DNA of 64,000 nucleotides from an uncultured Dehalococcoidia bacterium (GTDB taxonomy: Bacteria; Chloroflexota; Dehalococcoidia; Lucifugimonadales; UBA1127), in NCBI GenBank assembly GCA_951812285.1, contig OX638292.1, forward strand, positions 1,590,551-1,654,550. The letters run 5' to 3'. The notes below the pieces were generated by a model. That model was given only the letters and a program-made list of their open reading frames with translations. It had not been told where the DNA came from and searched no databases. Position 1 is the stretch's first letter. The number at the start of each line of letters is the position of its first letter. This document shows positions 22,387 to 40,200 of this stretch, piece by piece. The position numbers and the translations under genes were made by a program.

Positions 22387-23133
22387 ATGGGAATTGGGGC
22401 ATTGCCTGCGGTTCTGTGGGCTGTGGGAGGGCTTCTGCTGCTTGCAGCGTGCGCCGGCCCATCGGCTGCGGCGCCTGCGAATCCCGGGCAGCAGACGTTG
22501 CCGGCGCCGGAATCCCCGTTCGACGCCAGGGACCTCCCCCCATCGTCGGCCGCGGTTGCGCCGGCTACGCAGCCGGCGCCGCAGGGACAGGCGCCCGCGC
22601 CCGTGCAGTCGAACGTGGCACCCCAGGGGCAGACAACGTCGAGCAATCAACAATCAGAAGTTCAGACCAAGGGAACAGGCGACAGCTCAAAGCAGACCGA
22701 ATACACGTGGCAGGACGGCGACCGCACAATGACCGTCATGCTCGAAACGGACCTGGCGGTTGGCGAGGAAGTCCCCGGCGCCAAGAGCGTGTATGGCGAT
22801 GCACCCGAAAGCGGCATCGTGCGGGCGGAGGACGTGCCCAGAGGGAGCAAGAGCGATCCCGTCTTCCGGTCGCAATCGGGCGCGCTCATGACCCTGCCCG
22901 GCGGAGTCCTGCTGGTCCTCGACCCGAAATGGAGCGCCAAAGAGATCACCGCCTTTTTCTCCACCAACAACATCAGTGGGGACCGCGTTGAGAAGCTGGG
23001 CTACATAGAGAACGGGTTCTTCGTTGAGACTGCGTCGGGCTTCCCGTCGCTGGACCTGGCCAACGCCCTCGCCACCCAGGACGGCGTCCTGATCTCGAGC
23101 CCCAACTGGTGGACGGAAGTCACCGTGAAATGA
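22387..23133 (+). CDS. Lipoprotein with subtilase propeptide-like C-terminal domain
   Basis: This is a 248-residue protein; ATG 22387 follows GGGAGAGGAGG. The signal ends in LLLLAACAG, a lipobox with Cys22. Residues 23-105 are a Pro/Ala/Gln-rich tether. The C-terminal part (about 165-248) reads LPGGVLLVLDPKWSAKEITA, then FFVETASGFPSLDLANALA and GVLISSPNWW. This resembles the inhibitor-like propeptide of fervidolysin-type and related subtilases (from memory). It has no protease domain of its own, but the next gene, 26 bp on, encodes a protein with two subtilase modules and no obvious propeptide. I infer that it folds or inhibits that protease in trans from the membrane surface. Confidence 0.65.
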   Translation: MGIGALPAVLWAVGGLLLLAACAGPSAAAPANPGQQTLPAPESPFDARDLPPSSAAVAPATQPAPQGQAPAPVQSNVAPQGQTTSSNQQSEVQTKGTGDSSKQTEYTWQDGDRTMTVMLETDLAVGEEVPGAKSVYGDAPESGIVRAEDVPRGSKSDPVFRSQSGALMTLPGGVLLVLDPKWSAKEITAFFSTNNISGDRVEKLGYIENGFFVETASGFPSLDLANALATQDGVLISSPNWWTEVTVK

Positions 23134-23159
23134 ACCCCTATGCTCCCGCGCATTGAGAG

Positions 23160-26100
23160 GTGACTGTTCCGATGTGCGAACTTCAGCTGCCGTTCAGGCT
23201 GTTGTCGATTGGAGGAGCATGCCTGTTCCTCCTGTCGGTTGGACTTGGGAGCGTGTCGGCGCAGAGCGGCACTCCCGGCGCGCCGGTCCTCGACAGCGTC
23301 AGCGCGGGCGACCGGGCGCTGCACGCCGCGTGGAGCGAACCGTCGGACACGGGATCATCCACGATAGCCACCTTCGACCTGCGCTACATCCTCACCACCG
23401 GGGACGAGACGGACGACGCCAACTGGACGGAGGTGGAGGGCGTTTGGCCGGGGGCCGGGGAGCTGGCGCACGCCGTCATCGACCTGAGCAACGGCGATCA
23501 GTACGACGTACAGGTGCGCGCCGTCAACTCGCGCGGCGACGGCGCCTGGTCTGCGACGGTCACGGGCACGCCCGCCGACCACGGGGGCAACCGGTCGTCA
23601 GCAACGGCCTTCACGTTGCAGTCGCCCATGCTGGGCTACATAGCGTCGAGCAGCGACGACGACTACTTCGCATTCACGCTGGACGACGACACCGGGATCT
23701 TCATCTTCACGACCAGCTACATCTCCGGGTTTCTTGCCACCACCGGCGACCTGCGGAACAGCAGCGGCACCGTCATCCGGCCGGATGAGGCAACTCCCGA
23801 CTTCCGGGAGCACGGCGACCAACTGCTCATCTGGGACAGCCTGGCGGCGGGCACCTACTACGTGCGCGTGGAGGCCCCCGAGGCCGGGTACTACACGCTG
23901 CACGCGCAACCCGTACCCGACAGCGCCAGCACGGGCGACGCCATCGGCATGAACCTCGGCGGGCGCGCCAATGGCATCCTGGAGCCCGGTTCCGGGGACG
24001 AGGACTACTTCAGCTTCGTGCTCTCGTCGGCCACCGACGTCATGGTCTGGCTGCCGCGCGCCGGCAACGGGCTCGATCCGCTGGGCACGCTGCTGGACGC
24101 GGAGGGTGCGGAGGTGGCCGGGCACGATGACAGCTTCATCGACGGCGACAGGGGCAGGCACTTCATCATCAGAGAGGAACTCGACGCCGGAGTCTACTTC
24201 CTGAAGGTGAGCGGCGCGCCATCAACGACCTTTGACGTTTGCAAGGGTTACAGACCGGTGGACATCAGACAGCGCTGGGAGAACTGTTACGATACGGAGG
24301 AGAAACCCGCCGCAACGGATTCGGGCCCGTACACCGTCGTCGTGGAGGCCGTGCCGCCGCGGAGCAGCTCACTGTCGTCGTCGGCTGCGCTGCACCTGGG
24401 CGATGGCCAACTGGCCGGCGGGCGGATCGACACCAGGGGTGATTCCGACTATTTCAGCATTACGGTCGACCAACCCACTCATGTGAAAGTTGACGTGGTT
24501 AGTGCAGAAGTAGAGACGGAGATGAGATTCTACGGCACTGACGGCGCCATAGCGCAACGATTCGCGGTGGACACCGACTATCTCCCGGGCGCATTCAAGT
24601 ACAGGCTCCATGCGACGCTGGAGGCCGGCACGAGCCATGTCAAAGTTGCCGCCGAAACCAGGGACATAACCGGGCCGTTCGCCATTCGGGCGACAGTGGA
24701 CAGGGAGTACGCGGACTTCCTCTCCACCTGCACCGGTCTCGCCACTTCGTACTCGGACCCGCTATACGGCTGCCAGTGGAATATGAACAACACCGGCCAG
24801 GATACCGGCCAAGGGGCGGGGACCCCTGGCGAGGACATCAACGTCGAGGAGGTGTGGGACGGCGGCAACCTTGGCGAGGGAATCAACATCGCCATCGTCG
24901 ACGACAGCCTTCACTTCGAGCATGAAGACTTGCGTGACAACGTCAACACCGACAAGAACATAAACTTCACCCAGTATGGAAACATCGCTGAGCGTCACTT
25001 CTACCATGGCACCTCCATGGCGGGGATCATAGCCGCTCGAGACAACGCATTCGGCATGCGGGGCGTGGCTCCCAGAGCAACCATCTACGGCTACAACTTC
25101 CTCCGCAATTCTACATTCGAAAACATGTCCCGCTCCATGCGGGGACACATGAACACTACCAGCGTTTCCAACAACAGCTGGGGGTTCAAGCCCGGGCCAG
25201 GACTGAATCGTCCCCCCCGGATTTGGGAGGTAGCGATTCAGACTGGAGTTAATAGGGGACTTAGGGGAAGGGGAGTCTCCTATGTCTTCTCCGCGGGAAA
25301 CGGCGCGCTGAAGGGGGGCTATTCCAACCTCAGCGGTCTAACAAATCACTACGCGGTCATGGCAGCGTGCTCCGTCAACGACCAGGGAGAATGGCCCGAC
25401 TATTCGGAGCAAGGCCCAAACTTGTGGATCTGCGCTCCCGCCGGCGATGCGTCGGCTGGCCGGCAGGGCGTGGTGTCGACCGACACGTATAACCGCTATA
25501 CCCAAGGCTCCGCGGGAAGCGCAGCCGCCACAGCCACGGTAACTGGGGTAACGGCTCTGGTGCGGAAGGCGAATCCTGCACTGACGTGGCGGGACGTGAA
25601 GTTGGTGCTCGCCGGATCCGCGCGCAAGAATGCCGCCGGCGACTCCGGCTGGACTTCGGGTGCGTTGAAATACGGTTCCTCCACGGAGCGGTATAACTTC
25701 AACCACAAGTACGGCTTTGGCGTGGTCGACGCCAAGGCGGCGGTGGACCTGGCGGAATCGTGGACCAACCTGCCAAGAATGCGGGTCGCCATTGGCGGTT
25801 CAGTCACCGACCTCGACCTGACAATTCCCGACGGAGGCACGGTCAGCCACAATATCACCGTGGGGCCCGGCGTTGGCTTCATCGAGTTCGTAGAGGTCCA
25901 CATTGCTACCAGGCACCCATCCTTCCGGGACCTGAAGGTTGAACTCACGTCGCCTGACGGGTCCACGTCAGTGCTCAGTGTGTCCCATGACTCGGAATCC
26001 AAGTTCCCACTGAACGGCTCGTTTCGCTTCGGGTCGGCAGCCCACCTGGGGGAGGGCGCGGGAGGCCAGTGGACCTTGCGACTCGTCGACGAAGTCACGG

Positions 26101-29100
26101 GCAACTCCGGCTTGCTCAAATCGTGGCGCCTAACGGTGTATGGCCACGTCTCGGGCGATGAGGTGCCCATAGTTTCTTCAATCACTTCTAACAATGCCGA
26201 GCTTGTTGTCGGTTGGACGGCGGTTGGCGACCATTCCGTTACAGCGTACGACGTCAGGTACATCGACAGCGCCGCCACAGACAAGGCCGATGCCAACTGG
26301 ACGGTGGTTGACGATGCTGTGACGGCGGGCACCGGGACGTTGACGTACACAATCTCCGGGCTCACCAACGGCGCCCAGTATGACGTGCAGGTGCGCGCCG
26401 TTCGGGGCGCCACGGACGGGGCGTGGTCGGGGACCGCCGTAGGCACGCCGATGGCCGGGAGCGCCGCAGTGCCCGCCATCCAGGACATCCGCACGGAGGA
26501 CACTGCCCTCAACGTGACATGGAATGCGCCCTCAAGCCCACCAGCACTGACAACCGCGTACGACGTGCGCCATATCCGCAGCGACGCCAGCGACAAGGCC
26601 GACGCCAACTGGACCCTTATAGATGACGCGTGGACCGAGGGAGCCCTCTCCTACACCATCACCGGACTGGCAAACTACGCCGAGTACGACGTGCAGGTGC
26701 GGGCCGTGAGCGCAAACGGCGACGGCGCCTGGTCATCGACGGCTACCGGCCAACCCGCAGAATTCGGAGACTCGGTGGAGACTGCTGGGACGCTGTTGTT
26801 AAACAGCCTCGTGCGCGGCGTCATCAACGTTGTGGGCGACCTGGACGCCTTCAAGGTGGAATTGAGCACAGCAGGGCATTACTCGTTCTACACCACCGGA
26901 AGCACGAATACCATTGGCGTACTGTTGGACGACCAAAGGGAGGAAATAGACCAGAATGACAACGGATTGCTGTCCAGATTCGATACGAACTTCTACATTG
27001 CGGCGGCTCTGGATCCCGGCACCTACTATCTGTTGGTATCCGGATACGGCAACGAAACGGGCAAATATGCGCTGAGGGCGGAGGCTTCGCCAGACAGTTC
27101 GAGCAGGTCGGACGCGGTGCCACTTCCCATCGACGGCACGGCGGAGGAGACGTTTAGCGGCGAATCCGATGAAGACTTTTTCAAACTGCAGTTGACTCAG
27201 AGGACAGACGTGGCTTTGCGCTCAACCGGGAACAGGGACACCGTGGCGGTCCTGACCAACTCCTCTGGCACCGAAATAGCATCAAGCGACGAGGGTTACA
27301 TGGACCCAAGTTGGCACAACTTCCTGATCCTCAAAAGACTCTCCCCCGGTACGTACTATCTCCAGATTCATGAGCACGGCGGAAGAAGCGGACCCTACAG
27401 GGTCCACGCGTCGAGCATCACAGAGCCGGGAAACACCAGCACGGACGCGCAGGAAATCCGATTTGGCGAGCTGACCGGAGGCCGTATCAGTTCCGGGGGC
27501 GAAACGGAATTCTTCACCTTCACCCTGGAAGAGAGAAGAAGAGTAAGGCTTGCCGCAACTGGTCAGCCTTTTCAAGGGTCAAGCCTACAGGTCGTCGCGG
27601 AGCTTCTGGACGGCAACCTCAACTCATTGGAAAGGTTTTGGGCCCATGCGTACACAGGCCTACTCGAGGGGGAGCGAGTCCTCCCGGCTGGCGAATATTT
27701 CCTTAAGATCAGGGGGGCGACCTCAACGGAGAAAGGGGTCTACGTGCTTCGGGCCTACCGAACTGCGGTATCTGCGCGCGAGTCAAACCCCTGTTCCGGG
27801 GACCTCATCGGCCTTTCGGACACCTTTGCCGGCTGCCAGTGGCATCTGATCAACGTAGCCCAACTTGGAGGTCTCGGTGGGCCCGACCTGAACATTGAGA
27901 GTGTTTGGAGCACGTACGACGGGGAGGGCATCAACGTCGTGGTCGTGGACGACGGCCTCGAATTTGGGCATGAGGACCTGACCGCCAATGTTGACAGAGC
28001 CAAGAACCACTCATACGTCGAAGGCAAGTCTGTCTCGGACCTCAACCCGTGGCACGGAACGTCGGTCGCCGGCGTCATCGCCGCCGAGGCCAACGACATA
28101 GGCGTGCGCGGCGTTGCGCCGGGCGCCACCATCTACGGCCATAACCTGCTCCATAACGTCACCGACATGAACCTAGGCTACGCAATGTCCCACGACTTGG
28201 CCACAACCGCCATCAGCAACAATAGCTGGGGCACCCCAGATTTTGGTCTCCCAAGTCCCGCCAATCATTTCTGGAGGGCCGGCGTTGAGAGCGGCATCAC
28301 CAGCGGCTACGGCGGTAAGGGGGTGTTTTACGCCTGGGCCGCTGGCAACGGCGCCTACTACCGTGACTATTCCTCCCTGGACGAGCAAACCAACTTCTAC
28401 GGCGTGACCGCAGTTTGTGCGGTGAATTACAGGGGAAAGCGTTCCTCCTTTTCGGAACCGGGATCCAACCTCTGGGTCTGCGGTCTGTCCAATAACGGGG
28501 CTACATCCGGCTTGCCCGGCATCACCACCACAGCCGTCCGCAACGACTACACCAGCAGGTTTGGCGGGACAAGCTCCGCCACTCCCATGGTCGCCGGTGT
28601 TGCGGCGCTGATGCGGGAGGCCAACGACCAGCTGACGTGGCGCGACATCAAGCTGATCCTTGCGGCCACTGCCCGGAAGGTGGACCCGGACAATACGGGT
28701 TGGACGGAGGGCGCCCTCAAGTACGGTTCGATGTCGGAGCGCTACTCCTTCAACTACGAATATGGATTCGGGCTTGTTGACGCGCAGGCCGCCGTGGACA
28801 CGGCTCTAACCTGGACCAATGCGCCGGCGTTTCGAAAGATCAGTGTCTCTTCCGGCGGTCTGGACTTGCACATCGCCGACACCCAGGGCGGAGTCTATGC
28901 AACGACTGTAACCACGAGCCTCACCGTGGACCCCCACGTGAGCTTCATCGAGCATGTTCAGGTAGACGTCGACCTCCAGCACACCTCGTTCAGGGACCTG
29001 CACATCGAGGTGGAGTCCCCAAGCGGTGTGGTCTCCGTCCTGTCGCCAACCGCGCTAGACGCCATAGGTACTTCTCTTACTGCGCTAGGTGAAAGGTGGA

Positions 29101-32100
29101 ATGGGGAATTCAGTTTCGGTTCAGCCAAGCACCTTGGCGAGAACGGCGCCGGGGAGTGGACGCTGCGGATATCAGACCGCGTCAGAAATGACTCAGGCAC
29201 ACTCCGGTCATGGGGCATCACCCTCTACGGGCATGGGGAGGGGCCGGGCATTCCCGCGATCGATGCCGTGACGGCGGGCGCCCGGAGCGCGACCGTCGCG
29301 TGGTCGGCGCCGACCATCACCGGCAACGCCGCCATCACGTCCTACGACCTGCGCTACCGAAGGGAAGAGCCGGACGCCGAGTGGGTGGAACTCCTGACCA
29401 TCTGGTCATCGGGCACGCTGAGCTACACGCTCTCCGGCCTGGACGGGGAGGCCACGTACGACATTCAGGTACGCGCGAGGAGCGGCACGGTCGTGGGCCC
29501 GTGGTCGAAGGCTGAAGCCGCCGAACCGACGTTGGCGACGCCGACCGCGCCTTCCATCATTGCCGTCGATCCCGGGAACCGCACCCTTGGCGTCACCTGG
29601 ACGCCGCCTCCCGAGGCGGTAGGGGACGAGATCACCGCCTACGACCTGCGGTACATCCTCACCAGCGCCGACGAGTCGGTCGACGCCAACTGGACGGTGC
29701 GCTCCCGCGTGTGGACGTCGGGGCCGCTGCGCTATGCGCAGGGCAGCCTCACCAACGGGTCGGGCTATGACGTGCAGGTGCGGGCGGTCAACAGCGAAGG
29801 CGAGGGGGCGTGGTCCTCCTCCCTCCAGGGAACGCCGGCGGACCGGGTGAACCTCAGGCTGGGGTGGGCCAGTGCCGCCACCACGGTCGACGAGAACGCG
29901 GGGTCGGTCACGCTGCAGGCTGAGCTTGTCGTTGCCGAGTCGGGCATGGTGGAGAGCGGGCTATCCGTTGACGTCGCCGTGACCGCCGATGGCGCCGCGA
30001 ACGCACCATCGGACTATACCGTGCAGCCGACGGCGCTCACCTTCAGCGCGAGTGACTTCACGTCCGCGACGATTCAGGGACAGACCCGCTACATCGCGGT
30101 GAAGGACATCGTCCTGGCCCTGGTGGACGACTCGGTCAACGAAGGCGACGAGCAGGTCACCCTGACGTTGACCTACGATGAGCCGGCCCTGCCGCACCTG
30201 GTGGGCGACCGTGCCACCCTGGCGGTCACCATCCGTGACGACGACCGCGGCCCCATCGCACTATCGTGGGAGAACCCGTCGGTCACCGTCGATGAGGGCG
30301 CCGGGGTGGTGGCCCTGCGCGCGTTGGCCATCACCGGGCAGGACGTCGCGCCTGCCGCCGATTTCACGGTGCAGGCGTCGGTGGCTGCGGTTGAGGGAAC
30401 GGCGGAACGGAGCGTCGACTACTCGCCGCATTCCAGCACGATCGTCTTCAGCGGCAGCTCGTTCAGCCGTACGACGATCGACGGCCAGGGCCGCTATCGC
30501 GCCGCGTACGATGTCGTGATCCCTATCGCGGACGACCTGGACGATGAGCCGGATGAGCAGCTGACGGTGGTCATGGCCTTCGTCAACCCGACGCTGCCGC
30601 ACCTGCAGGGCTCGTCGGCGACGGCGACCGTCACCATCCGTGACAACGACTTCGTTCCCGTCACCATTGGCTGGGACCCGCCGGCGGCCAGCCTGGAAGA
30701 GCATGGGCCCACGGTGACCCTCGGGGCCACGGTCACCACCACCGTGGACAGGATGCCCGAGAGCGGGTTCTCCGTCCTCCTCTCGGCGACAACGGCCGAC
30801 GACACGGCGACCGCCGGGTCCGACTACCGATCGCTGACCCAGGACCTGAGCTTCCAGCAGAGCGACTTTACGCGCACCGACGTGGGCGGCCAGTTCCGCT
30901 TCCAGGCGACCAAGGACGTCACGGTCTCCATCATCGACGACACGGTGGACGAGGGGGACGAGGCCTTCACCGTGGACCTGGCGTACCGCGGGGTCATGCA
31001 CAACCACTACACGGGCGGGAGCGCCGAGGCGACCGTGACCATCGTCGACAACGAGTTGCCGGAGGTGACCCTGGGCTGGGAGGCTGCAACGCTCTCGGTG
31101 GACGAGCCGGCCACACCGGGGAGCACCGTGGCCGTGACGCTAACGGCCGTGGCCAGCACAGTGGAGAACATGCCGCCGGAGCCGGGCTTCACCCTCGACT
31201 ACAGCGTGACGACGGCGGACGGCACGGCGACGGCGACGGCGGACTACGAGGCGCTCCACGAGACCAAGTCCATTCCACGCAGCGACTTCACCGCCGAGAC
31301 GGTGGACGGGCAGACCCGGTACCGGACCACGCTTTCCTACACGGTCACCATCGCGGACGACACCGTGGACGAGGAGGACGAGACCTTCACGGTCCGGCTC
31401 GCCTTCGACGACCCCAACGCGCCGTACCTGATACCCGGGGACATGACGGCGACCATCACCATTGCGGACAACGACCACGTGGCGGTGAGGCTCGGCTGGG
31501 CGGAGACGCGGTTCACCGCGGAAGAGCCCACCACCGTGGGTGACACCACATCGTTGACCCTGACGGCCCGGGCGGTAACGACGAAGGACAAGCAGCCAGA
31601 GGCGGGCTTCGTCATGAACTTCAGCGTCAGCAGCGCCGACGGGACGGCGCAGGAACCCGCGGACTACACCGGGGTCTTCAGCGGGTCGGAGTCCTTTACG
31701 CCGAACGATTTCTCGCGGACCACCCTGAACGGACAGCGGGTGTTCGTGGCGGCAAGGGACTTCACCGTCACCATCGCCCACGACACCCGCGACGAGCCCA
31801 ACGAGACCTTCACCGTCGATCTCGACCTGACCAATGCCAGCCTGCCGCACCTCAGCGCGGGCGCCACCCGCGCCACGATCACCATCACCGACAACGACCA
31901 CGTGCCCGTGGCGCTGAGCTGGGCGCAATCGTCCTTCACGGAGAACGAGGACACCGCTGCCGTCACCCTGACGGCGGAGGTGACCACGACGGTCGACAAG
32001 ATGCCGGAGGCCGGGTTCGTGGCGGCCGTCGCGGTGGAGACGGTGGACGGCAGCGCCACGGCGGGGCCGGACTACGTCCGGCTGTCGACGGCGCACAGCT

Positions 32101-33893
32101 TCCCGCAGAGCGCCTTCAGCCGGGTCGACACGGGTGGGGGGCTGTACCGCTACCAGGCGACCCGCGCGTTCACGGTCAGCCTGCGGGAGGACAACGCCGA
32201 CGAGGAGACGGAGCAGTTTCAGGTCGTGCTGGCCTACAACAACCCCGCCCTGCCCCACCTGACGGGCGGCAGCGCCACCGCCACCATCGCCATCACCGAC
32301 AACGACCACGTGCCCGTGCGCCTCGGCTGGACCGAGACCCAGTTCACCGTGGAGGAGCCCACCACCGTCGGCGACACCACGCCGCTGACCCTGACGGCCC
32401 AGGCGGTGACGACCAAGGACAAGCGGCCCGAGAGCGGGTTCACCTTCGACATCGCCGTGAGCACCGCCGACGGCACCGCCCGGGAGCCGGGCGACTACGA
32501 GAAGCTCACGGAGACGGAGACCATTGACCGCTTCGACTTCTCCCGGCAGTCGGTGGGCGGCCAGTTCCGGTGGGTGGCCGAGGCGAGCTTCACCGTCAAC
32601 GTCAACCACGACACCATCACGCAGGAAACCGAGACCTTCCAGGTGCACCTGGCCTACGCTGGTTCGAGCCAGCCCTACCAGCTGCGGGCGGACACCACGG
32701 CGACGGTCACCGTCACCGATGACGCCGCATCCCTCGCCGACCTGACCACCACCGTCACCGTCGACAGGGGCACGGCAACATTCGGCGATACGCTCACCTA
32801 CGAGTGGTCGGTGACCAACACCGATGCGGCGGACACCACCAACGTCCGCCTCAACGCGACGCTCGACCCGGGGGTGACCTTCACCTCCGCCGGCGTGGAC
32901 CCCCCGTCGACGGGCCAGTGCAGCCAGTCGGGCGGCACGGTGACCTGCACCCTCGGCACGCTGTCACAGTCCGACAGGGTGGACGGCGCCATCGTGGTGG
33001 AGGTTGCCGACAGCGCGTCGGCGGACATCGCGTTCAGGGCGCTGGCGAAGGGCGACCAGCTCGACCGGACGCCGGGCGACAACGACGACGCGGTGGCGAC
33101 GGAGCTCGTTGCGCCGCCGCGGGCGATCGCGGACCTGCGCGCCACCGGGGAGGGCGGCCACATCGACCTGGCGTGGAGCGCCCCGGTCGACAACGGCAGT
33201 CCCATCACCGCCTACACGCTGGAGCGCAAGGACGACGTGAACGACTTCGTGGCGCTGACGGCGCCGGACCCCAACGCCCGCTCCTACCGGGACGAGGGCG
33301 TGGTGAGAGGGACCGAATACACCTATCGCATTCGGGCCGCCAACGCCGACGGCACGGCTGCCTGGTCCAACGAGGCCACGGGGGAGACGCGGGTCATCCC
33401 GCTGCCCGTCTCCGGCGGAGGCGGCGGAGGCGGCGGCGGCGGCTTCGGGCCGGCGCCGAAGGCGCCCAAGTTCGCCGACGGGTTCCGCACCACGAGAACC
33501 TTGCCGGAGAACGCCCGGCCCGGCGCCGCGGTGGGCGCGCCGATACCGGCGTCCCACGTGGACGACCTGGCCATCACCTACGCTCTCAGCGGGGCCGACG
33601 CTGCCTCCTTCACCGTCGACGTGGGGACGGGGCAGATGCGGGTCAAGGAGGGGGTCGAGCTGGAGCTGGGGCGCACGTACACGGTGAACCTGACGGCGAC
33701 GGACGCCGCGGGGTTCGGCGCGGTCATCATCGTCGTCATCGAGGTGTCCGGGGCCGCCCACCACGCCTACGACCTCAACGCCAACGGCGTCATCGATCGC
33801 GTCGAGGTCATCGCCGCCGTCCGCGACTACTTCCAGGGGCTCATCGACAAGCGCGACGTCGTCGAGATCATCAAGCTCTACTTCGCCGGGTAG
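23160..33893 (+). CDS. Giant secreted double subtilase (FN3/PPC/S8/P-domain duplication, Calx-beta, C-terminal tag)
   Basis: This protein has 3577 residues from GTG 23160 (ATG 23172 is possible) and a signal peptide ending near VSAQ. Order: FN3 (38-140), three PPC-like domains (141-515), S8 subtilase (517-865), P-domain (868-1000), two FN3, three PPC-like (1200-1535), second S8 (1541-1880), second P-domain (1884-2025), two FN3, seven Calx-beta repeats (about 2229-3190), DUF11-like (3192-3315), FN3, Gly-rich linker, cadherin-like domain and EF-hand tail (about 3420-3577). S8-2 has Asp1597, His1632 and Ser1805 (GGTSSATPMVAG). S8-1 keeps Asp581, His616 and SAGN, but the Ser position is Ala788 (AGSAAATATVTG). 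S8 plus P-domain is the kexin/proprotein-convertase arrangement. Probably a surface protease whose first module is a pseudo-enzyme. Confidence 0.88.
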   Translation: MTVPMCELQLPFRLLSIGGACLFLLSVGLGSVSAQSGTPGAPVLDSVSAGDRALHAAWSEPSDTGSSTIATFDLRYILTTGDETDDANWTEVEGVWPGAGELAHAVIDLSNGDQYDVQVRAVNSRGDGAWSATVTGTPADHGGNRSSATAFTLQSPMLGYIASSSDDDYFAFTLDDDTGIFIFTTSYISGFLATTGDLRNSSGTVIRPDEATPDFREHGDQLLIWDSLAAGTYYVRVEAPEAGYYTLHAQPVPDSASTGDAIGMNLGGRANGILEPGSGDEDYFSFVLSSATDVMVWLPRAGNGLDPLGTLLDAEGAEVAGHDDSFIDGDRGRHFIIREELDAGVYFLKVSGAPSTTFDVCKGYRPVDIRQRWENCYDTEEKPAATDSGPYTVVVEAVPPRSSSLSSSAALHLGDGQLAGGRIDTRGDSDYFSITVDQPTHVKVDVVSAEVETEMRFYGTDGAIAQRFAVDTDYLPGAFKYRLHATLEAGTSHVKVAAETRDITGPFAIRATVDREYADFLSTCTGLATSYSDPLYGCQWNMNNTGQDTGQGAGTPGEDINVEEVWDGGNLGEGINIAIVDDSLHFEHEDLRDNVNTDKNINFTQYGNIAERHFYHGTSMAGIIAARDNAFGMRGVAPRATIYGYNFLRNSTFENMSRSMRGHMNTTSVSNNSWGFKPGPGLNRPPRIWEVAIQTGVNRGLRGRGVSYVFSAGNGALKGGYSNLSGLTNHYAVMAACSVNDQGEWPDYSEQGPNLWICAPAGDASAGRQGVVSTDTYNRYTQGSAGSAAATATVTGVTALVRKANPALTWRDVKLVLAGSARKNAAGDSGWTSGALKYGSSTERYNFNHKYGFGVVDAKAAVDLAESWTNLPRMRVAIGGSVTDLDLTIPDGGTVSHNITVGPGVGFIEFVEVHIATRHPSFRDLKVELTSPDGSTSVLSVSHDSESKFPLNGSFRFGSAAHLGEGAGGQWTLRLVDEVTGNSGLLKSWRLTVYGHVSGDEVPIVSSITSNNAELVVGWTAVGDHSVTAYDVRYIDSAATDKADANWTVVDDAVTAGTGTLTYTISGLTNGAQYDVQVRAVRGATDGAWSGTAVGTPMAGSAAVPAIQDIRTEDTALNVTWNAPSSPPALTTAYDVRHIRSDASDKADANWTLIDDAWTEGALSYTITGLANYAEYDVQVRAVSANGDGAWSSTATGQPAEFGDSVETAGTLLLNSLVRGVINVVGDLDAFKVELSTAGHYSFYTTGSTNTIGVLLDDQREEIDQNDNGLLSRFDTNFYIAAALDPGTYYLLVSGYGNETGKYALRAEASPDSSSRSDAVPLPIDGTAEETFSGESDEDFFKLQLTQRTDVALRSTGNRDTVAVLTNSSGTEIASSDEGYMDPSWHNFLILKRLSPGTYYLQIHEHGGRSGPYRVHASSITEPGNTSTDAQEIRFGELTGGRISSGGETEFFTFTLEERRRVRLAATGQPFQGSSLQVVAELLDGNLNSLERFWAHAYTGLLEGERVLPAGEYFLKIRGATSTEKGVYVLRAYRTAVSARESNPCSGDLIGLSDTFAGCQWHLINVAQLGGLGGPDLNIESVWSTYDGEGINVVVVDDGLEFGHEDLTANVDRAKNHSYVEGKSVSDLNPWHGTSVAGVIAAEANDIGVRGVAPGATIYGHNLLHNVTDMNLGYAMSHDLATTAISNNSWGTPDFGLPSPANHFWRAGVESGITSGYGGKGVFYAWAAGNGAYYRDYSSLDEQTNFYGVTAVCAVNYRGKRSSFSEPGSNLWVCGLSNNGATSGLPGITTTAVRNDYTSRFGGTSSATPMVAGVAALMREANDQLTWRDIKLILAATARKVDPDNTGWTEGALKYGSMSERYSFNYEYGFGLVDAQAAVDTALTWTNAPAFRKISVSSGGLDLHIADTQGGVYATTVTTSLTVDPHVSFIEHVQVDVDLQHTSFRDLHIEVESPSGVVSVLSPTALDAIGTSLTALGERWNGEFSFGSAKHLGENGAGEWTLRISDRVRNDSGTLRSWGITLYGHGEGPGIPAIDAVTAGARSATVAWSAPTITGNAAITSYDLRYRREEPDAEWVELLTIWSSGTLSYTLSGLDGEATYDIQVRARSGTVVGPWSKAEAAEPTLATPTAPSIIAVDPGNRTLGVTWTPPPEAVGDEITAYDLRYILTSADESVDANWTVRSRVWTSGPLRYAQGSLTNGSGYDVQVRAVNSEGEGAWSSSLQGTPADRVNLRLGWASAATTVDENAGSVTLQAELVVAESGMVESGLSVDVAVTADGAANAPSDYTVQPTALTFSASDFTSATIQGQTRYIAVKDIVLALVDDSVNEGDEQVTLTLTYDEPALPHLVGDRATLAVTIRDDDRGPIALSWENPSVTVDEGAGVVALRALAITGQDVAPAADFTVQASVAAVEGTAERSVDYSPHSSTIVFSGSSFSRTTIDGQGRYRAAYDVVIPIADDLDDEPDEQLTVVMAFVNPTLPHLQGSSATATVTIRDNDFVPVTIGWDPPAASLEEHGPTVTLGATVTTTVDRMPESGFSVLLSATTADDTATAGSDYRSLTQDLSFQQSDFTRTDVGGQFRFQATKDVTVSIIDDTVDEGDEAFTVDLAYRGVMHNHYTGGSAEATVTIVDNELPEVTLGWEAATLSVDEPATPGSTVAVTLTAVASTVENMPPEPGFTLDYSVTTADGTATATADYEALHETKSIPRSDFTAETVDGQTRYRTTLSYTVTIADDTVDEEDETFTVRLAFDDPNAPYLIPGDMTATITIADNDHVAVRLGWAETRFTAEEPTTVGDTTSLTLTARAVTTKDKQPEAGFVMNFSVSSADGTAQEPADYTGVFSGSESFTPNDFSRTTLNGQRVFVAARDFTVTIAHDTRDEPNETFTVDLDLTNASLPHLSAGATRATITITDNDHVPVALSWAQSSFTENEDTAAVTLTAEVTTTVDKMPEAGFVAAVAVETVDGSATAGPDYVRLSTAHSFPQSAFSRVDTGGGLYRYQATRAFTVSLREDNADEETEQFQVVLAYNNPALPHLTGGSATATIAITDNDHVPVRLGWTETQFTVEEPTTVGDTTPLTLTAQAVTTKDKRPESGFTFDIAVSTADGTAREPGDYEKLTETETIDRFDFSRQSVGGQFRWVAEASFTVNVNHDTITQETETFQVHLAYAGSSQPYQLRADTTATVTVTDDAASLADLTTTVTVDRGTATFGDTLTYEWSVTNTDAADTTNVRLNATLDPGVTFTSAGVDPPSTGQCSQSGGTVTCTLGTLSQSDRVDGAIVVEVADSASADIAFRALAKGDQLDRTPGDNDDAVATELVAPPRAIADLRATGEGGHIDLAWSAPVDNGSPITAYTLERKDDVNDFVALTAPDPNARSYRDEGVVRGTEYTYRIRAANADGTAAWSNEATGETRVIPLPVSGGGGGGGGGGFGPAPKAPKFADGFRTTRTLPENARPGAAVGAPIPASHVDDLAITYALSGADAASFTVDVGTGQMRVKEGVELELGRTYTVNLTATDAAGFGAVIIVVIEVSGAAHHAYDLNANGVIDRVEVIAAVRDYFQGLIDKRDVVEIIKLYFAG
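33411..33890 (+). other. C-terminal surface tag, copy 1
   Basis: Gly-rich linker, FGPAPKAPKFADGFRTTR, a cadherin-like domain with YALSGADAASFTVD, then AYDLNANGVIDRVEVI (a canonical EF-hand loop: D-x-N-x-N-G-x-I-x3-E) and DYFQGLIDKRDVVEIIKLYF. Near-identical in layout to the tails at 41978 and 45856. Confidence 0.85.
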
Positions 33894-34281: not shown

Positions 34282-37200
34282 ATGATGGAACTAAACGAGG
34301 GTTCCTGTAGCAGCCCGAATGCGCCTCGATTGCAGCCCAGGGGGGTGGTAAGCCCCGCTCGCGCCCACCCGCCGGGATTTCTCCGTGTTCTCCTCTCATT
34401 GGCAGCCGTCGTGGTGGCGGCGGGGCTGCTGCTTGTGCCCGGGGAGGCGCGCGCACAGACGAATCCTGCTGCCCCCGGAATTGACAATGCGACCGTGGAC
34501 GGAACGTCCCTGATCATTTTCTATAGTGATCTCCTGGACCCCAACTCCACTCCCGCAACGTCCCAATACACTGTGACCGTGGGCGGCACCACCGAGCAAA
34601 CTCCCTCGAGCGTCGTGGTTCGGGCCGCTGAGGTTGAACTGACGCTTGGGACGGCTGTCACCAGCGGCGAAGCAGTGACCGTGACCTACAGGGGGGGGAC
34701 GACCAACGTTCAGAGCCTGTCACACATGACACACGTAGGGGCGCTGACCAACCAGGAAGTGAAGAACTTCACCGACTCGACCAACCACTTGCCGACGTTC
34801 TCGAGCAATGCGGTCACACTCACGGTCGATGAGAACACAGCCACCGGGGGGAACGTCGGGAGCCCAGTCCCCGCAACGGACCCCGACTCGGGCGACACGC
34901 TGACCTACGAACTGCCCGGCCATATCACCTACTTCGACGTTACGGCCGCCACGGGTCAGATAACAGTAGATACGGCCACCCTGGACTTCGAGGGTGGTAC
35001 GACTTCTTACGAATTTGCGCTCTTCGTTCGCGATAGCGAGGGCCCCGATGGAGGGGGCGACAGCATACATGACGACAGCATCAAGGTGACGGTCAACGTC
35101 AACGACGTCAATGAGCCGCCGGCATTTGTGGATGGCCTTACCGCCCCGACGTGGATGGAGGGCACGTCGACCGGTCAACTCCTTGCCGATTATGAGGTGA
35201 CGGACCCTGAGGATGACTCGCTGACATGGACGCTGACCGGCGCCGACGCGTCTCACTTCACCATCAACGCGTCGACAGGCGCTCTCATGTTTCAGGACGA
35301 GCCCGACTTCGAGGACCCCTTGGACGACGGCATGGATAACGTCTACAACATGACCGTTAACGTCCGCGACAGCAAGATCAACACCGCCACAAACAACGGC
35401 AACTCCGACTCCGCGGTAGACTTAAGCTTCGATTTCACAGTCACCGTCACCAACGTCAATGAGGACCCGGACATTACGAGCACTGGGGCCGGTTTCGCAA
35501 CAATCAGCGTCCCGGAGAACACGTCGGACAGCACCGTACTCGCCACCTACACCGCGAGCGACCCCGACGCTGATGACACAGCAGACACGCTTGTCTGGAC
35601 GCTGTCCGGCCCCGATGCCGACCAGCTTGAAATGTTTGGTTCCACCCTGTATTTCAGGGATCCACCCAACTTCGAGGTTCCTACTGACAACGGCGGAAAC
35701 AACGTCTACAACGTGATAGTCAATGTTCGGGATGATGCTGATGCCAATGTCGATGACACATTGAACGTCGCAGTCACCGTGACCAACGTCGACGAGCCTG
35801 GCATGGTGACGCTGCCCGGCACTATCACAGCCGGGATGGCGGCAACTGCGATGTTGAGCGACATAGACGGGGCTGTCAGCAACGTGGCGTGGCAGTGGTC
35901 GCGGTCACCAGCTCCAAGCGGCGCGTTCAACAACATTAGTGGAGCGACCTCAGCCTCCTACACGCCCGTGGCCGCGGACGTGGGCATGCATCTGAAGGTC
36001 ACGGCGATGTACATGGACCCGCAGGGTTCGGGAAAGAGTGCAATCAGCCCAGCGTCGAGTGCGGTGTTGAGGGGGAACCAGGACCCGTCGTTCAGCAACA
36101 TGTCGGCCATGCGGAGCGTGGATGAGAACAGCGCGTCGGGGGTGAACGTTGGGGCTGCAGTGTCGACCACGGATAGCGACGGCGACGCGCTGCAGTACAC
36201 GTTGACCGGCACGGACGCGTCGTCCTTCACCATCGATTCGAACGGCCAGATAAAGACCACGGGGGTCACCTACAACTACGAGTCCAAGAGCAGCTACAGC
36301 GTGACCGTGAACGTGCGCGACAATAAGGACGATGCCGGCAACACCAACTCCATGATAGATGACACCATCGCGGTGACCATCAACATCAACAACGTGGACG
36401 AGCCGGGGACGGTGACCATCTCGGGCTTGGAGGTGGGCGGCGAGACGCTGACGGCGTCGGTGACCGACATCGACGGGACGATCACCGGCCTGTCGTGGCG
36501 GTGGCAACGGCAGGGGAGCGGCAGCAATTTCAACAATATCAGCGGGGCTACCTCCAACACGTATGCGCCCGTGGCTGCGGACGTGGGCAAGAGGCTGAAG
36601 GTTAAGGCGATGTACACGGACCCGCAAGGGTCGGGCAAGAGCGCGGAGGCCGAGACGGGGGCGATCGGCTCAAGCAACTCCGACCCGGCGTTCCCTTCGA
36701 GTGAGACCGGCGCCCGCAGTGTGGCGGAGAACACGGGCGCAAACATGAACATCGGCACGCCGGTGGCGGCCACTGACTCGGACATGGACACGTTGCACTA
36801 CACGCTGGGGGGCACGGATGCGTCGGACTTTGACATCGATGCATCGACAGGCCGGTTGAAGACCAAGTCCGCGCTGGACCATGAGGCCGACGCGAGCTAC
36901 ACGGTGACAGTGAGCGTCAGCGACAACAAGGACGCCGCCGGCGACGCCAACAGCAACGCGGTGGATGACACCGTCACGGTGACCATCACGGTGACGGACG
37001 TCAATGAGGCGCCGGTGATATCGTCGCCTCCGGCGACCAGGAGCATCCCTGAGAACAGCACGGCCGTTTACACGTTTGCGTCGACGGACGTGGACGCTTC
37101 CGACACGCGGTCGTGGTCGGTGGAGAACGCGGACGACGGGGGCCTGTTCACGATCAGCGGGTCGACCGGAGCGCTCTCGTTCACGAGTGCGCCGGACTTC

Positions 37201-40200
37201 GAGACGCCAAGCCAGTCCGGAAGCACCGACAACCGGTACGTGGTGACGGTGAAGATCACCGACGCCGGTGGTTTGAGCGACACGCACGAACTCACTGTCA
37301 CCGTTACGAACATCAACGAGGCGCCCGACATCACGACCGATTCAGGGACATACTTAGCCTTTAACGTCGACGAAAATACGACAACTGACACGGTCATCAA
37401 GACCTACATGGCAACTGACGTGGACGCCGGAAGCGTATTGACGTGGTTGCTGGAAGGCAATGACGCAGGCGACTTCAATATCACGAAGAACGCACAAGGG
37501 CACGGGGATCTGACCTTTGCTAACGTGCCCAACTACGAGATGCCGGCCGACGCCGACACGTTGAATGACTACGACTTAACTGTAAAGGTCCGCGACAATC
37601 ACAGCGGCAATCTCACAGACACGGTGAGTGTCGCAGTCACCGTCGAGGACGTGAACGAGACGCCGGTGGTCAGCGGGACTGCGGAGCCGAGCTTCATGGA
37701 GATCGAGTACGACGCTACCTTACCGGTCCTCACCATCGGCACGTATACGGCCACCGACGATGAAGGGGACACGATGTCGTGGGCCGTGACCGGCACGGAC
37801 GCGGCGCACTTCTCGATCACGTCGACGGGCGTGCTGTCGTTCAGCATCAGACCGGACTTCGAGAACCCGGCTGACCTGGACGACTCCAACATGATGGGCG
37901 CCTCCAACAACGCGTACGATATCGTCGTGGAGGCCACGGACGACAATGCGCAGGGGGGCAAGGGGGGGACGCAAACGGGGACGTACGCCGTCACGGTGAC
38001 GGTGACCAACGTCGACGAGACGCCGGAGATTCCGGCGGGGGTTGATAACGAAAGCTTCGAGGAGATTCAGTTCGACGCTGTTTCCGCAGACCTGGACCTG
38101 ATGACCTACACACCTCGGGACGAGGAGACCTCCGATCTCACCAACCTGTCGTGGTCCCTTGGCGGCACAGACGCTGCCGACTTCGAGATCACGGAGGATT
38201 CCACAAACGGACACGGTACGCTCAGCTTCCGAGAGCGGCCCAACTACGAGGAGCCGACCGACCGCGTGAACACCACAGACGGCCATGTAGCCGGTGACCG
38301 AATGTACGAGGTCATCGTGATGATCAGCGACGGACCGAACACGCGAAAATACCCGCTGACGGTGACGGTCACCAACGTCAACGAGACGCCGATATTCACG
38401 GTAGAAAGCACCGCTTTTCACAGAGACGAGATCGAGTACGACTCGGGGATTACGGCGCAATATCTCTCCACCATCCCGGCCACAGATGAAAACCAGTTCT
38501 TATGGTACGAGTTTGACGTGCGGGACGAGGAGGGGGATGACATCATTTTCACCCTCACCGGGGCCGACGCGGAGGACTTCGTCCTCACAGAGGACACGGC
38601 TTTTATGCCGACGGCAGACGCCGACGAGAGGGCCATCGCCCGCTGGGCTATCGTGCCGAACTATGAGGTGCCGCTGGGTTCTTCAAGTGAGGGGCCGAAT
38701 GCATACGTGTTCACAGTGAATGCATCCGACGGCTTCACCACGCGGGAGCACTCCTTCTTTATCCAGATTATCAACGTCAACGAGCAGCCGTCGTTCACGG
38801 GGACTCCGGAAACGGCGATAACGCTCGACGAGCACGACGCAACCCTCGATGCGAACTTCCAGGAGCCGCCCTACATCTTCCCGACTATCGCGTCATACAC
38901 CGCGCACGATGAGGAGGGCGGGGTCACGTGGTCGCTGACGGGCACGGACGCGGGGGACTTCGAGATCGACAGCGTCGGCGCTGTGACTTTCAAGGAGACG
39001 CCCAGCTTCGAGGACCCCAGGGACTCCGGCGGGAACAACGTGTACGAGTTCAACGTCGTCGTCACCGACGTCAAGAGCGGCTCGACAATGCGCTCGGCCA
39101 TGGAGGCCGTCACCGTGACGGTGCAGGACATCGAGGAGACGGGCGTCATCCAGGTGGACAACGTGACCCCTGCCGTGGGGGAGATGATCACCTTCGCGCT
39201 GACGGACCCGGACGGCGATATCGACACGGACCAACAAGACATCAGCTGGACCCTGAGGGCACAGGAGTCGGGGGTGTGGCAACCCATCACCCTCGGTCCC
39301 TCCGCCTCGACCATGCTGGTGTACACCGTGGATGAGGACGATGCCGGGAAGCCGCTGCGGGCCGAGGTGACATACTACGACCGCCGAAACGCTGACCGCA
39401 ATTTCGTCAACCGGAAATCACTGACGAGCGCTGAGACCCAGGAGGTCCTGGAGGACCCAGCGCCCAACGTGGACCCGCGATTCCGCGAGGGGTCGAGCCA
39501 GTCCATCGAGGAAGGCCCGGCCGGCAGATTCCTGCCGGACCGCATCACCGCCACGGACCGCGACGGCGACTCCCTGACGTACGCCATCGAGCCGTCGCCG
39601 GCTTCCGCGTTCTTCGAAATCAACCCGTCCACCGGGCAGATCGAGATAGTGGAGCCGCTGGACTTCGAAACAGCGGGGCCTGGTGGCATCCTGGTCTTCA
39701 CGGTCACTGTGCACGACGGCAAGGGCTTGGACTCGAACGACATGGTCATCCCCGACACGTCCGTCGACGCGACGACGTCCGCCTCCGTTGTGGTCATCGA
39801 CGTGGAGGAGGAGGGAGTCGTCACGTTCTCGCACCAGGAGCCGGAGGCGGGGACGCAGGTGACGGCGACACTGACGGACGGGGACGGCGGCGTCACCGGC
39901 CAGATGTGGGAGTGGTGGCGGTCGGCGAACGGGTCCGACTGGAGCCCCATCCCCAACACGAACAGCAGCACCTACACGCCCACAGTGGCCGATGAGGACT
40001 TCTACCTGCAGGCCAGGGTCACGTACACGGACAGTCGTGGCCCCGGCAAGCCCGCGGAGGGGATCACGGGCCCGGTGCCGAGCGAGAACCGGCGGCCGCT
40101 GTTCCCGTCGACGGAGGACGGGCGGCGGACAATCGATGAGAACTCGCGCTCGGGGGCGAACATCGGCGCGCCGGTGGCGGCGGAGGACCCGGAGCGGGAC

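What the first reader, a model, noticed from the sequence alone, without database searches (positions are those of the whole stretch)
22387..23160. Lipoprotein carrying a subtilase propeptide in trans
Seen: the lipoprotein's last 85 residues (LPGGVLLVLDPKWSAKEITA, FVETASGFPSLDLANAL, SSPNWW) resemble a subtilase inhibitor/propeptide, while the following giant lacks such a region before its S8 modules. Known: subtilase propeptides are intramolecular chaperones and inhibitors, nearly always in cis. Inference: here folding or inhibition is done by a membrane-tethered partner, keeping the protease off until released from the surface.
Basis: partly seen in the sequence, partly recalled or inferred. 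Interest (0 to 1): 0.77.

Follow-up and report, generated by a model that had tools for sequence, protein, structure and literature searches.

The report
Protease folding-helper on separate tethered protein
A bacterium makes giant surface proteases that lack the built-in 'propeptide' such enzymes normally need to fold and stay off, and a separate lipoprotein encoded just upstream carries that missing piece; one known system (Aeromonas ASP/ORF2) works this way, but this is a different, often membrane-anchored family found in several phyla.

Summary
The 248-aa lipoprotein (22387-23133) ends in a domain predicted to have the subtilase-propeptide fold; the S8 giant 26 nt downstream has none. The domain lies directly upstream of a separate S8 giant at about 27 distinct loci in several phyla, including all three S8 genes of this genome. 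All 25 trans copies examined end exactly 8 residues after an invariant Pro-Asn, and 21 end in Lys/Arg, the P1 residue of kexin-type proteases; the S8 module's best PDB matches are kexin and furin. So it is very probably a propeptide in trans: steric foldase and product-like inhibitor. The general kind is known (Aeromonas ASP/ORF2); this family is different in sequence, lies upstream and is often lipid- or membrane-anchored. Not supported: "kept off until released from the surface"; anchors vary and some copies look soluble. In the window's giant, S8 module 1 has lost its catalytic Ser, so module 2 is the likely client. My docking model was inconclusive; nothing was tested at the bench.

The parts
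22387..23133 (+). Lipoprotein / trans-propeptide gene, 248 aa
   Evidence: ORF with RBS-like GGAGAGGAGG upstream and lipobox LAAC; two paralogues in own genome and many homologues
22387..22452 (+). Signal peptide ending in lipobox LAAC (Cys = codon 22)
   Evidence: Sequence and tabulated anchors
22453..22701 (+). Variable, P/S/T/A/Q-rich tether, not conserved between homologues
   Evidence: Alignment A1; 83% PSTAGEDQ residues
22702..22893 (+). Conserved N-terminal beta extension of the core (YTWQDGDR ... PVFRSQSG)
   Evidence: Alignments A2 and A3; strands in AF2 model
22894..23106 (+). [quoted passage not shown]
   Evidence: AF2 pLDDT >90 over most of it; fused cis homologue; cis-prodomain profile match
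23107..23130 (+). C-terminal tail of 8 residues ending in Lys, predicted to occupy the non-prime subsites with Lys at S1
   Evidence: 25 of 25 copies have exactly 8 residues after PN; 21 of 25 end K/R
23160..33893 (+). Giant S8 protein, 3577 aa: FN3, PPC x3, S8-1, P-domain, FN3, PPC, S8-2, P-domain, FN3, Calx-beta etc.; no cis prodomain
   Evidence: Pfam; no core-profile hit with filters off
24807..25688 (+). S8 module 1: catalytic Ser replaced by Ala (GSAGSAAATATVTG) and S1 acidic residues lost; likely pseudoprotease
   Evidence: Alignment with furin and 22 other modules
27840..28739 (+). S8 module 2: intact Asp/His/Ser, kexin/furin-like, both S1 acidic residues kept; probable client
   Evidence: PDB alignments to kexin and furin

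Best explanation
The lipoprotein is the propeptide of the downstream kexin-type subtilase, encoded as a separate gene and exported on its own. Its C-terminal ferredoxin-like domain packs on the newly exported S8 module (most likely module 2) outside the membrane and templates its folding. Its 8-residue tail, ending in Lys, then lies in the active-site cleft like a cleaved product, holding the enzyme inactive until the helper dissociates or is degraded. The lipid anchor plus flexible linker keeps the helper at the membrane where the giant emerges. Shown here: fold class (predicted), gene pairing, absence of a cis prodomain, one cis-fused homologue, and the fixed basic C-terminus. Inferred: binding, foldase action, inhibition, and the role of the anchor.
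For: Trans gene directly upstream of a separate S8 giant at about 27 distinct loci in Chloroflexota, Acidobacteriota, Binatota and a gammaproteobacterial MAG. All three S8 genes of the own genome are paired. Presence is linked across 393 genomes of the class: 8 with both, 1 core only, 2 S8 only, 382 neither, Fisher P 3e-14 (related genomes are not independent). Fused version immediately N-terminal to S8 (E 2.9e-32, with a model that includes it). The fused domain also weakly matches Pfam Fervidolysin_NPro-like (E 0.005-0.03) and cis prodomains at 91-96% in the larger sets. [quoted passage not shown] Fixed tail length 25/25 and K/R end 21/25, fitting kexin-type S1 pockets and the C-terminal Lys of ORF2 at the ASP active site (PMC5638518). 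Distances of the two partners correlate (Mantel r 0.77, 0 of 20000).
Against: No direct complex: the single-chain pseudo-complex model folded the S8 part poorly. Foldseek of the domain finds only generic ferredoxin-like folds, with PCSK9 at rank 33 and nothing at E<=0.001. Direct profile match to cis prodomains without the pre-noticed L136 is only 21-45% probable, and 2% with a six-sequence subset. Two genomes have the S8 with no detectable partner (G300, G407), and some kexin-like S8 proteins elsewhere start at the S8 domain with no propeptide, so a propeptide may be dispensable. Mantel r also reflects shared descent.
Confidence: 0.8

Rival explanations
1. It is only a surface-tethered inhibitor (immunity-like guard) that protects the producing cell from its own giant protease, with no role in folding, like stand-alone I9 proteins.
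For: Stand-alone propeptide-like inhibitors without chaperone role exist (PMC6993865); lipid or TM anchor in many copies; basic C-terminus fits product inhibition.
Against: The client lacks any cis propeptide, unlike proteases regulated by stand-alone inhibitors; the tight pairing and the cis-fused homologue point to the propeptide role.
Confidence: 0.12
2. The ferredoxin-like domain is an unrelated accessory, for example a surface assembly or export factor for the giant, and the propeptide likeness is convergence.
For: Ferredoxin-like folds are common and Foldseek hits are generic; no Pfam hit for the window protein.
Against: Fused homologue sits exactly at the propeptide position; end-to-end profile alignment with cis prodomains including the terminal Pro-Asn region; fixed 8-residue basic tail.
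Confidence: 0.05
3. The pairing is a relic: the S8 modules fold without help and the helper is drifting, as in genomes with S8 alone.
For: G300 and G407 have S8 without a detected partner; propeptide-less kexin-like S8 proteins exist in Alphaproteobacteria; module 1 is degenerate.
Against: The core keeps 69% mean column identity in A2 with many invariant positions, while the linker is free to vary; that is strong constraint.
Confidence: 0.03

Closest known systems
ASP / ORF2 of Aeromonas sobria and homologous operons (Vibrio, Shewanella, Chromobacterium, Pseudoalteromonas); ORF2 = Pfam PF18492
   Same: Kexin-like S8 without cis propeptide, adjacent gene encoding a small chaperone-inhibitor whose C-terminal basic residue reaches the active site (PMC5638518; PDB 3wqb matched by our S8 and, weakly, by a Vibrio ORF2)
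   Different: ORF2 is encoded downstream; ours is upstream, often lipid- or TM-anchored with a long linker. No Pfam PF18492 hit in the family and no profile similarity to the one ORF2 relative I could fetch. Client here is a giant multidomain protein.
Fervidolysin-type N-terminal prodomain, Pfam PF22148
   Same: Same fold class and position relative to S8; the fused homologue L057/L125 hits it weakly (E 0.005-0.03) and matches conventional cis prodomains at 91-96% in the larger sets
   Different: Those are in cis; the window protein itself does not reach the Pfam threshold
Stand-alone I9 inhibitors (Pleurotus POIA1, yeast proteinase B inhibitor, Arabidopsis SPI-1, TgMIC5, Plasmodium SUB1-ProM)
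   Same: Propeptide fold as a separate gene product (PMC6993865)
   Different: Eukaryotic; described as inhibitors independent of chaperone activity
Lipase-specific foldase Lif/LipH
   Same: Membrane-anchored steric chaperone for a secreted enzyme (PMC7046727, PMC13381987); similar design of anchor, linker and foldase (design comparison from own knowledge)
   Different: Unrelated fold and client (own knowledge)

Membership tests
[quoted passage not shown]
   AF2 model, pLDDT >90 over most of the domain; prediction only
Subtilase N-terminal propeptide (I9 / fervidolysin-type) | Homology to domains located directly N-terminal of an S8 domain | tested here: met
   Fused L057/L066/L125; profile alignment to cis prodomains
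Subtilase N-terminal propeptide (I9 / fervidolysin-type) | Passes a curated family threshold (PF22148 or I9) | tested here: not met
   No hit for the window protein; the one member that hits PF22148 is the fused one, below cut-off
Subtilase N-terminal propeptide (I9 / fervidolysin-type) | C-terminal tail of suitable length ending in the protease's P1 residue | tested here: met
   25/25 with 8 residues after PN, 21/25 K/R; furin-type S1 acids kept in module 2 and in many, not all, other modules
Subtilase N-terminal propeptide (I9 / fervidolysin-type) | Binds, folds and inhibits the cognate S8 domain | not testable with these tools
   Pseudo-complex model inconclusive
ORF2 external chaperone (PF18492) | Sequence family PF18492 | tested here: not met
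   No hit in 26 members; hhalign to a single Vibrio ORF2 at chance
ORF2 external chaperone (PF18492) | Adjacent to a propeptide-deficient kexin-like S8 | tested here: met
ORF2 external chaperone (PF18492) | Gene lies downstream of the protease | tested here: not met
   Upstream at every adjacent locus of this family

The most novel reading that the evidence does not exclude
A dedicated, often membrane-tethered foldase-inhibitor family for giant kexin-like surface proteases, formed by splitting a cis propeptide off at its natural cleavage point so that the gene boundary replaces the processing step, and spread between phyla as a two-gene unit; in tandem-module giants one helper serves one live module beside a dead one.
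Probability: 0.5. Interest if true: 0.72.

Novelty: new variant of a known kind. Interest (0 to 1): 0.6.

Why it matters
A 2022 survey names ASP as the exception among subtilases to having an N-terminal propeptide (PMC9549277). This would be a second solution, unrelated to ORF2 by sequence, in several phyla of mostly uncultured bacteria, often with a lipid or membrane anchor, and with both split and fused forms. It makes cis-to-trans evolution of steric chaperones testable by swapping split and fused versions, and gives annotators a reason to look for a missing propeptide in the neighbouring gene.

Tried and rejected
Direct Pfam, NCBIfam and PDB searches with the lipoprotein: nothing. Viral contigs and plasmids: no homologue. 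Foldseek against PDB: generic ferredoxin-like hits only. First fusion alignment A4 was discarded because MAFFT placed the cores on the S8 region; A5 corrected it. The single-chain pseudo-complex (L023 lipoprotein core read through three TGA codons into its giant; 1059 aa) gave a good core but an S8 domain of low confidence, so docking cannot be read from it. Profile comparison with a Vibrio ORF2 was at chance but rests on one sequence, so a distant common origin is not excluded. The ASP/ORF2 structure paper PMC4409271 is not in the library.

Full report
What is there. The window carries a 248-aa lipoprotein gene (22387-23133) and, 26 nt downstream on the same strand, a 3577-aa S8 giant (23160-33893). 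The lipoprotein has a signal peptide with lipobox LAAC, a P/S/T/A/Q-rich linker of about 80 residues that is not conserved, and a conserved core from Y106 to the end. The giant has FN3, three PPC repeats, S8-1, P-domain, FN3, PPC, S8-2, P-domain, then FN3 and Calx-beta repeats (and sequence). It has no cis prodomain.

Who else has it. The own genome (2.86 Mb, one contig) has three copies of the lipoprotein and exactly three S8 genes, paired one to one. Homologues occur in other Chloroflexota, in Acidobacteriota, Binatota and a gammaproteobacterial MAG (record titles). After removing duplicates, about 27 loci have a separate S8 giant immediately downstream on the same strand. Exceptions: L030 (genome G463) has the helper and the single S8 on different contigs; L031 and the degenerate L047 lie in a genome whose only S8 matches are two pieces with a stop codon in one; L121 is cut by a contig end; L130 was not examined. 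Among 393 genomes of the class, 8 have both, 1 has core only, 2 (G300, G407) have the S8 only (Fisher P 3e-14, without correction for relatedness).

The fused homologue. In G167 one 2205-aa ORF carries the domain at residues 327-411 (E about 1e-13 with a profile that did not include it) and S8 at 467-754. The refuting outcome, fusion to something else, was not seen.

Link to ordinary propeptides. The window protein alone has no family hit. The fused domain hits Pfam PF22148 (fervidolysin-type N-prodomain) below cut-off (E 0.005-0.03) and matches cis prodomains of ordinary subtilases by hhalign at 91-96% in the larger sets (30% in the smallest); the trans family matches the fused domain at 98.5%. 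Direct comparison of trans cores with cis prodomains gave 77% and a score of 31.6 against a shuffled maximum of 15.6, but that set includes L136, which I had noticed through a weak profile hit (E 0.007). Without L136 it is 21-45%, still aligned end to end, and only 2% with a six-sequence subset. So membership rests mainly on the chain through the fused protein.

Fold. [quoted passage not shown] Foldseek gives only generic ferredoxin-like matches, PCSK9 at rank 33, so fold alone is not proof.

The tail. In all 25 trans copies examined the protein ends exactly 8 residues after an invariant Pro-Asn, and the last residue is Lys or Arg in 21 (background 7.9%; nominal P 7e-20, not corrected for relatedness). 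No other of the last eight positions shows such enrichment; the next highest has 9 of 25. The S8 modules match kexin and furin best. The two acidic S1 residues of furin are both kept in module 2 of the window and in many other modules, though not in all. In ASP/ORF2 the C-terminal Lys of ORF2 sits at the catalytic centre (PMC5638518). The trans helper therefore ends about where a cis propeptide would be cut. That is the most specific support for the mechanism.

Which module. Module 1 of the window's giant has Ala in place of the catalytic Ser and has lost the S1 acids; the paralogue L022 has lost His, Asn and Ser in its module 1; module 1 of L024 keeps the triad but not the S1 acids. Module 2 is intact in all three. 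The helper is expected to serve module 2.

Anchor. Of 33 copies, 10 have a strict lipobox and a few more a Cys at the right place; others have a TM-like or ordinary signal peptide, and some acidobacterial copies have linkers of only about 11-16 residues. Tethering is common but not general, so the idea that surface release switches the protease on is not supported as the family's function.

What failed. A single-chain pseudo-complex was folded to test docking, but the S8 part had low confidence and nothing can be read from it.

Verdict. A real, conserved trans propeptide; mechanism by homology and sequence logic, unproven at the bench. It works like ASP/ORF2 but is not a member of the ORF2 family by sequence (PF18492 not hit) or by gene order.

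Noticed in passing
24807-25688: S8 module 1 of the giant is a likely pseudoprotease (Ser to Ala, S1 acids lost); the paralogue L022 module 1 has lost His and Ser.
   Followed up: yes
33760-33893 and 42320-42453: The S8 giant and the next giant (34282-42453, cadherin-like repeats) share a similar C-terminal module (YDxNxNG...EVIxAVxDYFxGxIxKxDVxEIxxxYF), resembling a dockerin/EF-hand-like element.
   Followed up: no
L119 (G300), L120 (G407): S8 giants of the same clade with no cis or neighbouring trans propeptide detected; G300 is in the same genus as the fused G167.
   Followed up: partly
L165, L168, L169: Kexin-like S8 proteins on alphaproteobacterial plasmids start directly at the S8 domain, with no room for a signal peptide or propeptide.
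   Followed up: partly
L171:4708-5163: A Vibrio campbellii ASP-like protease is followed by an ORF2 (PF18492) gene, an unannotated example of the known system.
   Followed up: partly
L127 / L094 (G463): Helper and its only S8 giant lie on different contigs of the same genome, compatible with action in trans from an unlinked gene.
   Followed up: partly
24729-24780 and 27792-27842: A conserved Cys pair (C...DPLYGCQW) just before each S8 module, possibly a disulfide in the mature N-terminal strap.
   Followed up: no
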